From: Nostoc sp. HK-01
GTDB lineage: Bacteria; Cyanobacteriota; Cyanobacteriia; Cyanobacteriales; Nostocaceae
NCBI GenBank assembly: GCA_003990705.1
Contig: AP018318.1
Coordinates: 124,001 to 188,000, forward strand
DNA: 64,000 nt
Direction of reading: 5' to 3'
The notes beneath the pieces were generated by a model. That model was not told where the DNA came from. It made no database searches and saw only the letters and a program-made list of their open reading frames with translations. This document shows, in pieces, positions 60,240 to 64,000 of the stretch. The stretch's first letter is position 1. Each line of letters begins with the position of its first letter. The translations under genes and the position numbers were made by a program.

Positions 60240-60749
60240 GTGGACTTATCCCGTATTCCTGCTCAACCAAAACCGGGTATTCTCAATGTTCTGATTGAAA
60301 TCCCAGGCGGGAGCAAGAATAAATACGAGTATGACAAAGAACTGGAAGCTTTTGCCCTAGACCGAGTGCTTTATTCTTCGGTAAGATACCCCTACGATTA
60401 CGGCTTTGTGCCGAATACTTTGGCTGATGATGGCGACCCGCTGGATGGGATGGTGATTATCGATGAGCCAACTTTCCCTGGTTGTATTATTGCTGCGCGA
60501 CCAATAGGTATGCTGGAGATGATTGATGGTGGCGATCGCGATGAAAAAATTCTTTGTGTACCAGACAAAGACCCACGCTATACCCACGTCAAATCTCTCA
60601 ATGACGTAGCGCCACACCGCTTAGATGAAATTGCTGAATTTTTCCGCAGTTATAAAAATCTGGAAAAGAAAGTAACAGAAATTCTTGGTTGGCAAGATGT
60701 TGGTACAGTTGCAGCCTTAGTTGAGCAGTGCATCAAAGCTGCTAAATAA
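60240..60749 (+). CDS. ppa: Inorganic pyrophosphatase, family I
   Basis: Hydrolyses pyrophosphate in the cytoplasm, pulling biosynthetic reactions forward. The 169-aa length is standard. The active-site signature DDGDPLD (about residues 63-69), [12 protein letters not shown] (about 44-55) and GGDRDEKIL (about 97-105) are intact. The start is GTG at 60240 with SD CAAGGAG upstream. A hairpin at 60764-60793 follows; it may be its terminator or the end of the TnpB locus. Confidence 0.97.
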
Positions 60750-60763
60750 GCATTGGTGACGTT

Positions 60764-60793
60764 CCTACACCAACCCCTGGGGTATGGTGTAGG
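60764..60793. terminator. Hairpin between ppa and tnpB
   Basis: Arms CCTACACCA (60764-60772) and TGGTGTAGG (60785-60793), perfect 9 bp, plus a second inner pairing (ACCCC with GGGGT) with one unpaired A. It sits 14 bases after the ppa stop and four bases after the end of the convergent tnpB. Candidate for a ppa terminator, and also for the right-end hairpin and omega-RNA 3' fold of the TnpB locus. Confidence 0.7.
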
Positions 60794-60797
60794 CTTC

Positions 60798-62165
60798 TCA
60801 GGCATTCCGAAAAATGCGTAGAACTTCCTTGGAGGTATCATCAGTAATTGAGTCAACAAATACCATGCTACCTTTACGGCGTTTTATAGTGGGGAACACG
60901 TCCAGCCCCACTCTCTTGAGATTAATAGCGGCATTAATATCTCTATCAACCCAGAGCTTTTGTTCATTGTCCCAATACCCGCGAATAGAGCAATCGGTGA
61001 AAATCACTTCATCCCGATACGAAAGCAGTTGAGACGTGTAAGCAGGATTCTTCGCCATCGCATAAGCCCCAGCTTTTGCAGCTATGTGTCCCAGGATTTG
61101 GAAGAATTGACCGAATGCGGCATCTGCCCAACTCAAATTGAGTCCAGACTTGGCAGATTGACCATTCGGAATGAAAGCACCTGTCTCGTCTTTTTTGGGT
61201 GCATTACGTTTTGTCAGACCTTTAAGATTAAGGTCTTCATGGAAGAAAACTTTTTTACCCGTTCTCACCAATTCGTAAGCGGTTTTGTATTGGAAATCCT
61301 TACGACATCTCGCAATCTTTTGATGCTGTCTTCCTTCTCGTTTTGCTAATTTACGACGTGCCTTAGATCCGCGCTTACGAGCATTCTTTTTCTGTGAAAT
61401 CCGAGTCAGTCTGCGCTGGTTTTTTCGCAACACCTTGAGGGATGGAAGTTTTACACCTTCAGAGGTTGCAAGGTAATCATCTTCATGAAGTACTGCATCC
61501 ACCCCTAGCGAATTATCCCAGGTCGGCAGAATCGAATCGGGTGTTATCGTTGGAATAGTTGGATCTTCTAATCGCAGGTTAACGAACCATCCATCATTTT
61601 TCTTGACAAATTGAAGCTGTTTGAGAATTGCGCCATCAGGCAAATGACGATGTGAGCGAATCTTAATCAGCCCAATTTTCGGCACTTTGACATACAAATA
61701 TTTGCCAGCAATCGAGCAGGAATGTAATTCCAGTCCAGCTCCTTCAATTACGAGTGAACGATAGCGTGAGTGCGACTTAAAGCGAGGTTTACCGCTTCTG
61801 TTGCCGTTACTGTCACCTGCGATGAATCGCTCAAAAGCTTTGTCTACTCGCTTACAAACTTCTTGCAGCGTGTTCGCAGGAACCCGTGATAAGTCTAACA
61901 CCTCGCCTGACCATTCGACAGTTACAGGCTCTTTCTTGAGGTCTGGTAGATACTTCTTCTGGCTGTAATAGTTCGGCTTGTCTCGCAGTTGAGGTAATAC
62001 TGTTACCAACGGGCAAGCATCAACTCTTGAGCGATTCATCTCCCACCAATCAAACCTATCTCCTAATTGACGGTTGTACCAATATTGGCAAATCCGCAGC
62101 CAATGATTTAACTCTAGCTTCTGGTCAGTGGTTGGAATTGCTTTGTACTGGTAGGTGTATTTCAT
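60798..62165 (-). CDS. tnpB: TnpB-family RNA-guided nuclease lacking the zinc-ribbon cysteines
   Basis: A 455-aa protein from ATG 62165; the frame runs on to 62390 but that extension is not supported because a promoter lies at 62166-62202. The RuvC triad is complete: D223 (SLGVDAVL), E310 (FFHEDLNLKGL) and D409 (DRDINAAINLKRVG). The OrfB N-terminal part is present (YKAIPTTDQKLELNHWL) and the Arg/Lys-rich bridge helix at about 248-290. The region after TSQ, where TnpB usually has two CxxC pairs, reads LLSYRDEVIFTDCSIRGYWD, with one Cys, so the zinc ribbon is gone. No TnpA is nearby. Could be an RNA-guided nuclease or a domesticated derivative. Confidence 0.88.
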   Translation of the reverse strand: MKYTYQYKAIPTTDQKLELNHWLRICQYWYNRQLGDRFDWWEMNRSRVDACPLVTVLPQLRDKPNYYSQKKYLPDLKKEPVTVEWSGEVLDLSRVPANTLQEVCKRVDKAFERFIAGDSNGNRSGKPRFKSHSRYRSLVIEGAGLELHSCSIAGKYLYVKVPKIGLIKIRSHRHLPDGAILKQLQFVKKNDGWFVNLRLEDPTIPTITPDSILPTWDNSLGVDAVLHEDDYLATSEGVKLPSLKVLRKNQRRLTRISQKKNARKRGSKARRKLAKREGRQHQKIARCRKDFQYKTAYELVRTGKKVFFHEDLNLKGLTKRNAPKKDETGAFIPNGQSAKSGLNLSWADAAFGQFFQILGHIAAKAGAYAMAKNPAYTSQLLSYRDEVIFTDCSIRGYWDNEQKLWVDRDINAAINLKRVGLDVFPTIKRRKGSMVFVDSITDDTSKEVLRIFRNA

Positions 62166-62202
62166 ACTATCATTGTATCGCAATCTGCAATACGTTACAA
62201 TC
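62166..62202. promoter_or_regulatory. Shared palindromic promoter between tnpB and the RHH gene
   Basis: ATTGTA (62172-62177) and TACAAT (62196-62201) are exact inverted copies 18 bases apart. On the minus strand this reads as -35 TTGTAA, 17 bases, -10 TACAAT, and six bases before the tnpB ATG, so transcription should begin about at the ATG (leaderless). The palindrome is a candidate operator for the ribbon-helix-helix protein encoded next to it. Confidence 0.6.
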
Positions 62203-62337
62203 ATGACCAGCAAAGAATCTGTGAACATTCGACTCCCAAAACAAGAGAAGGAAATATTAGACCGATATTGCAAAACAGTTGGCAGATCCCAGACGGATGT
62301 GATTCGAGAGTTCATTCGTTCATTGCCTGAGAGATAG
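62203..62337 (+). CDS. Ribbon-helix-helix (CopG-like) DNA-binding protein, 44 aa
   Basis: A small frame starting at ATG 62203 (MTSKESVNIRLPKQEKEI), ending RSLPER before TAG. SVNIRLP forms the N-terminal beta strand and QEKEILDRYCKTVGRSQTDVIREFIR the two helices of the RHH fold. No other frame element explains this conservation-like pattern. It is divergent from tnpB across 37 bp; a repressor of the shared promoter is the simplest reading. A longer frame begins at 62155 inside tnpB, but the ribbon fits the shorter start. Confidence 0.75.
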   Translation: MTSKESVNIRLPKQEKEILDRYCKTVGRSQTDVIREFIRSLPER

Positions 62338-62527
62338 TTCGTTTTGTCGTTGCTGCTCTCTCTTGCCTGATTGCATTCGGCATCAGTCAAACAGCACTCC
62401 TCAACTCACGCGCATTCCTCTCACACCAAATCAGAGATTATGGTCTGAGGCTCCTGCTGCTCTAGCTGAGTTAGCAGTTAAGAATCAACACTCCTAACTC
62501 CTCAACGAAGTGCTAGGTACAAAATTC
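62338..62527. other. Spacer between the two TnpB loci
   Basis: No gene recognised in 190 bases. Contains imperfect palindromic stretches (TGCCTGATTGCATTCGGCAT) that may be element end remnants. Confidence 0.4.
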
Positions 62528-62534
62528 GTCAACC

Positions 62535-62558
62535 GCCCCACTCACAAGGGGATGGGGC
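62535..62558. repeat. Subterminal hairpin of the TnpB element
   Basis: GCCCCA (62535-62540) pairs with TGGGGC (62553-62558); an inner CTC/GGG pairing extends it. Located six bases after the stop of the nuclease gene. Likely transposition end and possible 3' part of the guide RNA scaffold. Confidence 0.6.
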
Positions 62559-62564
62559 TTGTAA

Positions 62565-63272
62565 CTAGGAAAAAGAATTTCCTGAAACATACGGGGTATT
62601 GACATTAGCTTTCCTCTTACGACACAAGTAAGTGTTTACTGTCCCTCTGTTTATTTCAAGAATTTGAGCCACTTCTCGTTGGCTTATTCCTTCACTAATG
62701 AATTTGTCTATTTGAGCCTTGTCATCAACAGTCAATCGTCGTTTATATTTGCGCGTATCAAATCCATCGTCAGTTTGCGCCTGAAAAGGTACGGGAACAA
62801 CAACTTTGTAAATATCCCATTTAGGGTAAAACTTAATTGAGCCTACAGAACCATTAGCGAATAGAACTTGTGACGGAACCAAATAACAGCTATCGGGTGT
62901 TACTACCCAAAGCGCATCAAAATCATTTGCGCTATATTTATGAACCACTGTTCTTGCTATGTTTGACTCATCCTTTTTGTAGCTACCACATACTTGAAGA
63001 GATACCCTGAAATAACCATCATCGCTAGTACCTGTTGTATATTTGCTTTGAATCCTTTGAAATGATCCATCCTTTTCACTAACCAAGTCATAATGACCTC
63101 TATCTCCAAAAGGCATTAAAACTTGATACCCTTCAGACAGCAAATAGGTAACACACAGGCTAACAGCATAATCGCCAAAAGCCTTGCTCTTTAAGTTAGC
63201 ACCAATCACAACATTCGCCGTAAGTGATACAGCTATTGTATCAGAATAAATAGCGATCGCGTTAGCTTGCAA
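62565..63272 (-). CDS. PD-(D/E)XK nuclease with C-terminal helix-turn-helix
   Basis: A 235-aa protein; TTG at 63272 overlaps the tnpB stop by 11 bases, and a later GTG (VIGANLKSK) is an alternative start. The nuclease domain (about 25-160) shows the core of the cyanobacterial group I intron-type endonuclease family: LKSKAFGDYAVSLCVTYLLS helix, then D62 in GHYDLVSEKDGS, then Q75 and K77 in RIQSKYTT. The C-terminal 45 residues form a resolvase-like HTH (DDKAQIDKFISEGISQREVA, then QILEINRGTVNTYL). It is encoded between tnpB and the element end. Function unknown; probably DNA cleavage linked to the element. Confidence 0.8.
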   Translation of the reverse strand: MQANAIAIYSDTIAVSLTANVVIGANLKSKAFGDYAVSLCVTYLLSEGYQVLMPFGDRGHYDLVSEKDGSFQRIQSKYTTGTSDDGYFRVSLQVCGSYKKDESNIARTVVHKYSANDFDALWVVTPDSCYLVPSQVLFANGSVGSIKFYPKWDIYKVVVPVPFQAQTDDGFDTRKYKRRLTVDDKAQIDKFISEGISQREVAQILEINRGTVNTYLCRKRKANVNTPYVSGNSFS

Positions 63273-64000
63273 CTGGTTTTACCGTCGCATTTGGAGTATC
63301 GCCTGACCCCTGCTCCTCTGTCCCTTTGGTAGAGGAGAGAATATAGTCATCCCTGACATTCTTAGCAGCATTGAGATCCGCGTGTGTTCGATGTCCACAG
63401 TTTTTGCAATGGAATCTGGACTTGTGGCGATTTGTTCGTCGAATGTGCTTACAGATGTTGCACTTCTGAGACGTGTAACGAGGATCTTGGTGAACTACTC
63501 GTTTACCCAATGCTTCTGCTTTGTAAGTCAGAAATTGCTCTTGTTGGTAAAAAGCCCAACTACCCAACCATTTATTCATTTTCTTGCCCCGTCGCTGTGT
63601 GCGAATACTGGACAAATCCTCTAGTACAAAAACCGCTATTCCTGGTTGGTTGGCTAACTTTTTACTGACACAATGATTCGTATCCCGCATGAACCGCTTC
63701 TCACGTCCAGACATCGCTTTTAAACAACGTTTGGTACTACGAGTGCCTTTTTGCTGGAGTTGACGACGATTGTATAAGTAACGTCTTTGTACTTTTCTAA
63801 TCTTAGAAGAACTGAAGAATTGACCATCACTGGTAACAGCTTGGTGATATAAGCCTCTGTCAATTCCTTGAATTTGTCCTTCTATTTGTTGCGGATCTTC
63901 TGTCTCAAAAACCAATCTCACCCAGAATTGCTTGGTGTTTTTGGTATAAGTTACAGTTGCCCCACAAAAATCCCAAGTTTCAAAAATCTCTTGGAAATAA
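63262..64000 (-). CDS. tnpB: TnpB RNA-guided nuclease (partial, N-terminus off window)
   Basis: The frame stays open from the window edge (…YFQEIFETWDFCGATVTYT) to the stop at 63262, so the GTG at 63921 is internal. The RuvC triad is visible in QGIDRGLYHQAV, FVLEDLSSI and HADLNAAKNV, and the zinc ribbon is intact (CNICKH and CKNCGH). The basic bridge helix lies around KVQRRYLYNRRQLQQKGTR. It appears catalytically complete. Unlike its neighbour at 60798 it is a conventional TnpB. Its 3' end overlaps the PD-(D/E)XK gene, so the usual omega-RNA region downstream is occupied. Confidence 0.92.
   Translation of the reverse strand, partial: YFQEIFETWDFCGATVTYTKNTKQFWVRLVFETEDPQQIEGQIQGIDRGLYHQAVTSDGQFFSSSKIRKVQRRYLYNRRQLQQKGTRSTKRCLKAMSGREKRFMRDTNHCVSKKLANQPGIAVFVLEDLSSIRTQRRGKKMNKWLGSWAFYQQEQFLTYKAEALGKRVVHQDPRYTSQKCNICKHIRRTNRHKSRFHCKNCGHRTHADLNAAKNVRDDYILSSTKGTEEQGSGDTPNATVKPVAS

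What the first reader, a model, noticed from the sequence alone, without database searches (positions are those of the whole stretch)
60798..62337. Zinc-ribbon-less TnpB divergent from a tiny RHH protein across a palindromic promoter
tnpB (D223/E310/D409 kept, only one Cys left in the former zinc-ribbon region) and a 44-aa RHH gene start 37 bp apart. ATTGTA and TACAAT are exact inverted copies that at the same time form a -35/-10 pair (17-bp spacing) leading to a start site at the tnpB ATG. This looks like a self-contained regulated nuclease: the RHH protein as repressor of a leaderless tnpB. This is unlike a bare transposon-borne tnpB and resembles the layout of toxin-antitoxin or defence modules.
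Basis: partly seen in the sequence, partly recalled or inferred. Interest (0 to 1): 0.8.

Follow-up and report, generated by a model that had tools for sequence, protein, structure and literature searches.

The report
Repressor-headed TnpB jumping element in cyanobacteria
A small bacterial jumping element carries an RNA-guided DNA-cutting enzyme back to back with a tiny DNA-binding protein that probably keeps the enzyme turned down, and the same pairing recurs in other cyanobacteria in the place where related elements carry their transposase.

Summary
In detail: tnpB (60798-62165, minus; D223/E310/D409 kept, zinc ribbon lost) and a 44-aa RHH gene (62203-62337, plus) diverge across 37 bp. The pair is not free-standing. 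It fills a 1,710-bp IS200/IS605-type element (60756-62465) with hairpin ends, TCAG target and covariation-supported guide RNA; there is a second copy, and sister genomes show empty sites. So the contrast with transposon-borne tnpB is wrong, but the RHH pairing is real. Of 80 family tnpB loci, 46 have a divergent RHH gene, 21 Y1 TnpA, 4 another RHH-like gene, 9 none of these, none both; of 44 named loci, 9 RHH, 16 TnpA, 19 neither. Partners were exchanged repeatedly. Zinc-ribbon loss is a clade trait; RHH is commoner outside that clade. TACAAT six bases before the tnpB ATG in 14 of 16 chosen loci supports a leaderless start. The conserved palindrome is TGTA-N13-TACA, not the reported spacing. 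Most likely RHH autorepresses this promoter, throttling a TnpB that guards the insertion site; repression is inferred. No such element was found in the held library.

The parts
60756..62465 (-). whole IS200/IS605-type element (1,710 bp) carrying RHH and tnpB, no tnpA
   Evidence: LE from copy 2 and relatives, RE from relatives; empty sites in sister genomes
60798..62165 (-). tnpB, 455 aa, RuvC D223/E310/D409 kept, zinc ribbon lost
62203..62337 (+). RHH gene, 44 aa
   Evidence: Pfam RHH_1 over cut-off; purifying selection
62166..62202 (.). 37-bp divergent promoter/operator region
62172..62177 (-). -10 box TACAAT of tnpB, 6 bp before the ATG; leaderless start inferred at 62165
   Evidence: same distance in 14 of 16 chosen RHH loci
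62195..62200 (-). weak -35 box TTGTAA, 17-bp spacer
   Evidence: only moderately conserved
   Evidence: exact, expected 0.03; exact in 2 of 16 loci, own included
62174..62194 (.). window's version (CGTA-N13-TACA) of the conserved palindrome TGTA-N13-TACA
   Evidence: 9 of 16 exact, 11 of 16 with at least 3 of 4; palindromicity 0.54 against a mean of 0.285
62338..62465 (-). left end (LE) region
   Evidence: LE-proximal 53-61 bp conserved in relatives, TnpA-bearing ones included
62420..62449 (-). LE subterminal hairpin
   Evidence: fold z -1.6, not significant alone; like hairpin region in relatives
62466..62469 (-). TCAG beside LE: target site / presumed TAM, outside the element
   Evidence: TCAG at 9 of 10 junctions read, own included; empty sites
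60756..60797 (-). right end (RE) with hairpin and terminal GTCAC
   Evidence: fold z -5.0; covarying helix
60756..60912 (-). omega-RNA scaffold overlapping the 3' end of tnpB and RE (5' limit not determined)
   Evidence: covariation score 0.523 against 0.174 shuffled and at most 0.112 slid, 39 sequences
60738..60755 (-). flank after RE = presumed guide; in sister genomes this flank lies directly beside TCAG
   Evidence: guide length assumed from known TnpBs (recalled)

Best explanation
This is a tnpA-less IS200/IS605-family element whose head gene is a tiny RHH repressor in the place of the Y1 transposase. The RHH protein binds an operator inside the 37-bp divergent promoter and represses tnpB, and probably itself. 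TnpB with its omega-RNA, whose guide comes from the right flank, cuts the matching empty site next to TCAG, so that the element is copied back and retained. Movement is supplied in trans by a Y1 TnpA. Shown by sequence: element limits, empty sites, omega-RNA structure, recurrent RHH-tnpB pairing, conserved promoter/operator layout. Inferred: RHH binding and repression, leaderless start, nuclease activity, trans mobilisation.
For: Pairing: 46 of 80 tnpB loci, in 31 of 48 genomes, have an RHH gene within 700 bp upstream, all 46 divergent; 1 of 77 in a downstream control. From the RHH side, 14 of the 30 RHH loci fetched have a divergent TnpB. RHH is under purifying selection. The promoter goes with RHH: TA(C/T)AAT-N6-ATG in 14 of 16 chosen loci with tnpB identities of 31-100%, not seen in two TnpA-headed Moorena elements with TnpB 84 and 82% identical. 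A palindrome TGTA-N13-TACA covers the -10 box. In the larger RHH group an 11-bp direct repeat lies next to the RHH start (z 8.7, 5.5, 4.8 in 26, 17 and 13 loci after redundancy filters; at most 1.2 at that lag on the tnpB side and 0.5 in 19 TnpA loci). Element. Omega-RNA. All 32 of 32 RHH-bearing genomes searched hold at least one Y1 gene.
Against: No binding, expression or cleavage data. RHH is a minority partner in the 44 named loci (9, against 16 TnpA and 19 neither). The window's operator only partly matches the conserved palindrome. Of 8 further RHH-TnpB loci with more distant TnpBs, by inspection all have TACAAT in the gap but only 1 has it 6 bp before an ATG, so the leaderless layout belongs to a subgroup. 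RHH reader residue against operator sequence is inconclusive: no difference in two identity bins, a difference in one with 14 contrasting pairs. The only Y1 TnpA of this genome sits in another element whose ends look different by eye. The AlphaFold model of TnpB is weak, mean pLDDT 67.8.
Confidence: 0.6

Rival explanations
1. The RHH protein is a transposition factor: it binds the element's ends or the shared promoter to help or restrain a TnpA supplied in trans; any effect on tnpB is secondary.
For: RHH occupies the place of tnpA between LE and tnpB and is exchanged with it; 32 of 32 RHH-bearing genomes searched have a Y1 gene.
Against: The repeats found lie in the tnpB/RHH promoter; LE is alike in RHH and TnpA elements, though RHH sites at the ends were not searched for.
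Confidence: 0.2
2. RHH and TnpB form a toxin-antitoxin-like addiction pair in which RHH neutralises TnpB by contact or by repression.
For: Divergent small DNA-binding gene next to a nuclease; NCBIfam lists antitoxin-like hits, all below cut-off.
Against: The RHH is 43-44 aa in six of nine forms measured, without room for a toxin-binding tail, though the other three have 56-70 aa; it pairs with TnpBs of 31-45% identity and is replaced by TnpA in relatives with TnpB 82-84% identical, odd for a dedicated antitoxin.
Confidence: 0.1
3. The RHH gene is a passenger of the head cassette and acts on other DNA; tnpB is expressed regardless of it.
For: Head cassettes move between tnpB lineages as a unit.
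Against: In one case read, the cassette limit lies 12 bp before tnpB, and the repeats sit on the tnpB promoter.
Confidence: 0.1

Closest known systems
IS200/IS605 family elements with tnpB (ISDra2 type; tnpB-only IS1341 type)
   Same: TnpB with RuvC residues, omega-RNA at RE, subterminal hairpins, insertion beside a short fixed site without duplication
   Different: tnpA is replaced by a divergent RHH gene; the zinc ribbon is lost in this TnpB clade
CopG and Arc, small RHH autorepressors (recalled)
   Same: about 44 aa; strand S-x-N-x-R like Arc Q-x-N-x-R (recalled); repeat or palindrome in its own promoter
   Different: linked to an RNA-guided nuclease in an insertion element; binding untested
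TldR, TnpB-derived RNA-guided repressors (recalled; seen here only in abstract listings and a reference list)
   Same: TnpB relatives with a regulatory side
   Different: here TnpB keeps its catalytic residues and the presumed regulator is a separate protein

Membership tests
IS200/IS605 family element | TnpB with RuvC D/E/D | tested here: met
IS200/IS605 family element | subterminal hairpins at LE and RE | tested here: met
   RE z -5.0, LE z -1.6 alone; both recur in relatives
IS200/IS605 family element | insertion beside a fixed short site without duplication | tested here: met
   10 of 10 sister loci lack the element behind ppa, 8 of 10 readable across the junction; TCAG at 9 of 10 junctions, an eleventh locus (L167) not read by the pattern
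IS200/IS605 family element | Y1 transposase TnpA in the element | tested here: not met
   none between LE and tnpB; one Y1 gene in the genome, in another element. tnpA-less members are an accepted subgroup (IS1341 type; passage in PMC12477157)
TnpB RNA-guided nuclease | omega-RNA at the 3' end of tnpB through RE | tested here: met
TnpB RNA-guided nuclease | zinc ribbon with CxxC | tested here: not met
   no CxxC in 28 of 28 rows at 57% identity or more
TnpB RNA-guided nuclease | guided DNA cleavage | not testable with these tools
   needs biochemistry
RHH transcriptional repressor | RHH domain | tested here: met
   RHH_1 over cut-off
RHH transcriptional repressor | operator in own promoter | tested here: inconclusive
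   conserved palindrome / 11-bp repeats; binding untested
type II toxin-antitoxin system | antitoxin with toxin-binding segment | tested here: inconclusive
   44-aa RHH, no antitoxin family over cut-off; PADLOC not searched

The most novel reading that the evidence does not exclude
RHH-headed TnpB elements are a distinct class in which the element has traded its transposase for a repressor, several times over. The RHH makes TnpB behave like a zygotically induced homing nuclease: a burst of cutting and copying when the element enters a cell without repressor, then silence once RHH builds up.
Probability: 0.3. Interest if true: 0.8.

Novelty: new variant of a known kind. Interest (0 to 1): 0.6.

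Why it matters
Many tnpB genes sit in elements without a transposase, and how such elements control a DNA-cutting enzyme and persist is open. A compact repressor that repeatedly takes the place of tnpA, with its own promoter cassette, gives a directly testable answer and a natural control switch for small RNA-guided nucleases. The zinc-ribbon-less clade, with kept catalytic residues, a guide scaffold and a target site read from the sequence, is also a set of candidate small nucleases for which I know of no test.

Tried and rejected
Rejected: that the pair is a stand-alone module (second copy and empty sites); that zinc-ribbon loss goes with RHH (RHH in 8 of 28 zinc-less rows and in 36 of 49 others); that the exact N18 palindrome is the conserved operator. 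Inconclusive or empty: RHH reader residue against operator; relatives in viral contigs (none by this method); Rfam (no family at gathering score); PDB fold search of the TnpB model (not completed). Loci without a known partner: the divergent ORFs of 16 of the 19 were inspected by eye and show no common third partner; three partial matches (L197, L201, L206) were left out. Pairs outside cyanobacteria were not searched for systematically; the window's RHH matched 24 of 72,556 plasmid records, all 24 listed rows cyanobacterial. Literature: searches (listings and starts of abstracts); of PMC8303175, PMC3119063, PMC8987985, PMC13092281, PMC12477157 and PMC2246112 I saw only passages found by term. 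None describes an RHH-tnpB pair. Most subscription papers are not held.

Full report
What is there. tnpB lies at 60798-62165 (-), 455 aa, and the RHH gene at 62203-62337 (+), 44 aa, 37 bp apart. TnpB is over the NCBIfam cut-off for guided TnpB and matches solved TnpB chains. RHH_1 is over its Pfam cut-off.

It is one mobile element. The genome holds a second copy on another contig (C2), 94.9% identical over 1,657 aligned bases; the match stops at LE on one side and in the diverged 3' part of tnpB on the other. In 100-base blocks the copies are 97-100% identical from LE through most of tnpB, 93% in one block, then 62-81%, with the break near window 61190: a mosaic. Both ends carry hairpins like those of relatives: LE ends in GAGAGGAATGC, RE runs GAAGCC(C/T)ACAC...GTCAC. 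Behind ppa, none of the 10 sister genomes has the element in the bases shown, and in 8 of 10 the sequence runs across the site (closest: GCATTG, then CTGAGTTAG); two have unrelated sequence there. The element is therefore 60756-62465, inserted beside TCAG on its own strand. TCAG precedes LE in 9 of 10 loci read, own included; the second copy has TTAG; L167 was not read by the pattern.

Guide RNA. The 3' end of tnpB through RE folds into helices with strong covariation. On 39 sequences 95.5% of cells pair; the score is 0.523 against 0.174 in shuffles and at most 0.112 in slid controls, and 17 of 25 pairs show two-sided changes. The structure was predicted on the same alignment, which favours it over slid versions. 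The 39 are part of 45 loci whose RE fitted my pattern, out of 56 tried. The flank after GTCAC, CAATGCTTATTTAGC, in the closest sister genome lies directly beside TCAG, as expected for a TnpB that protects its own site (recalled from work on TnpB).

The RHH partner. I fetched 80 tnpB loci of the family from the list, which is ranked by similarity, skipping most truncated matches. They come from 48 genomes; a few are near-copies (78 distinct starts). Within 700 bp upstream, 46 (31 genomes) have a divergent RHH gene, 21 a Y1 TnpA, 4 a second RHH-like gene, 9 none of these, none more than one. Downstream control: 1 of 77. The 44 named loci, five or more of which repeat loci of the first set, gave RHH 9, TnpA 16, neither 19, three of the last being partial matches. 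From the other side, of 30 loci fetched for RHH similarity, 14 have a divergent TnpB, six of these recognised by Pfam only. On the tnpB tree (75 rows, quick search) RHH needs at least 8 and TnpA at least 10 changes on starred branches. The clearest exchange: two Moorena elements have TnpB 84 and 82% identical to this one, like LE and RE, and an unbroken Y1 TnpA frame where the window has RHH. In L066 TnpB is 85% identical but the RHH is another one, close to that of L195, whose TnpB is 42% identical to the window's; DNA similarity between the window's copy and L066 starts 12 bp before tnpB.

Zinc ribbon. No CxxC is found in 28 of 28 rows at 57% identity or more; 47 of 49 other rows keep one, the two exceptions being truncated. 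The 28 form a starred clade with 14 TnpA, 8 RHH, 4 RHH-like and 2 without partner; the other 49 have 36 RHH, 6 TnpA and 7 without. The AlphaFold model leaves 375-394 and 425-455 below pLDDT 50.

Promoter and operator. In 16 loci chosen for an RHH of the window's type, TA(C/T)AAT lies 6 bp before the tnpB ATG in 14 and 24-25 bp before in 2; two more of the 18 first drawn (L020, L030) were dropped for unclear starts. The expected start is then at the A of the ATG. In 8 loci with more distant TnpBs, L020 and L030 among them, TACAAT is in the gap in all 8 by inspection, at that distance in 1. Palindromicity of the 16 is highest at one centre (0.54, next 0.46 with fewer cells, mean 0.285), TGTA-N13-TACA, 9 exact and 11 near; ATTGTA-N18 with at least 5 of 6 occurs in 3, ATTGTA-N13 in 8. 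Related loci are not independent, and the -10 box itself supplies one arm. In the larger RHH group tnpB usually has a purine-rich leader instead, and the 32 bases next to RHH show an 11-bp direct repeat (z 8.7, 5.5, 4.8 in 26, 17, 13 loci under stricter redundancy limits), absent on the tnpB side and in 19 TnpA loci, which show a 16-bp one (z 5.1). Eleven-base spacing recalls Arc-type operators (recalled).

Reading. An RHH autorepressor holding down a TnpB that secures the element's site would explain the divergent layout, the repeats, the selection on RHH and the exchange with tnpA, provided that movement comes in trans. All 32 of 32 RHH-bearing genomes searched have at least one Y1 gene, but the window's genome has only one, 1.1 kb beyond the window's right end in another element. 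Repression itself is inferred.

Novelty. IS200/IS605 elements, TnpB and small RHH repressors are known kinds; a TnpB element headed by RHH in place of tnpA was not found in the held library. In two annotated plasmids the RHH beside a tnpB is not listed as a gene (that gene table is incomplete).

Noticed in passing
about 62525-64000 and about 1.5 kb beyond the window: A second insertion, absent from the closest sister genomes: zinc-ribbon tnpB (63262 onward, minus), a Y1 TnpA 1.1 kb beyond the window's right end, and between tnpB and the left junction a PD-(D/E)XK plus helix-turn-helix-like gene (62565-63272) found at E 1e-20 only in the own genome of 145 family genomes.
   Followed up: partly
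window near 61190; G000:C2:354341-355696: The two copies are a mosaic: near-identical head and 5' tnpB, 3' tnpB plus guide-RNA part about 79% identical, as if the targeting end had been exchanged by recombination.
   Followed up: partly
window 62466-62510 against L153: The hairpin repeat at the insertion site (GAGTTAGGAGT...ACTCCTAACTC in the sister) has its inner part inverted in the window's genome.
   Followed up: no
L075, L083, L084, L085: A second small RHH-like gene (about 60 aa, MSTRKGKKPVKN... or similar) takes the same head position in four zinc-less tnpB loci.
   Followed up: no
TnpA-headed loci, 62 to 30 bases before tnpB: A 16-bp direct repeat (z 5.1, 19 loci) in the promoter region of TnpA-headed elements, perhaps an operator of another kind.
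   Followed up: no
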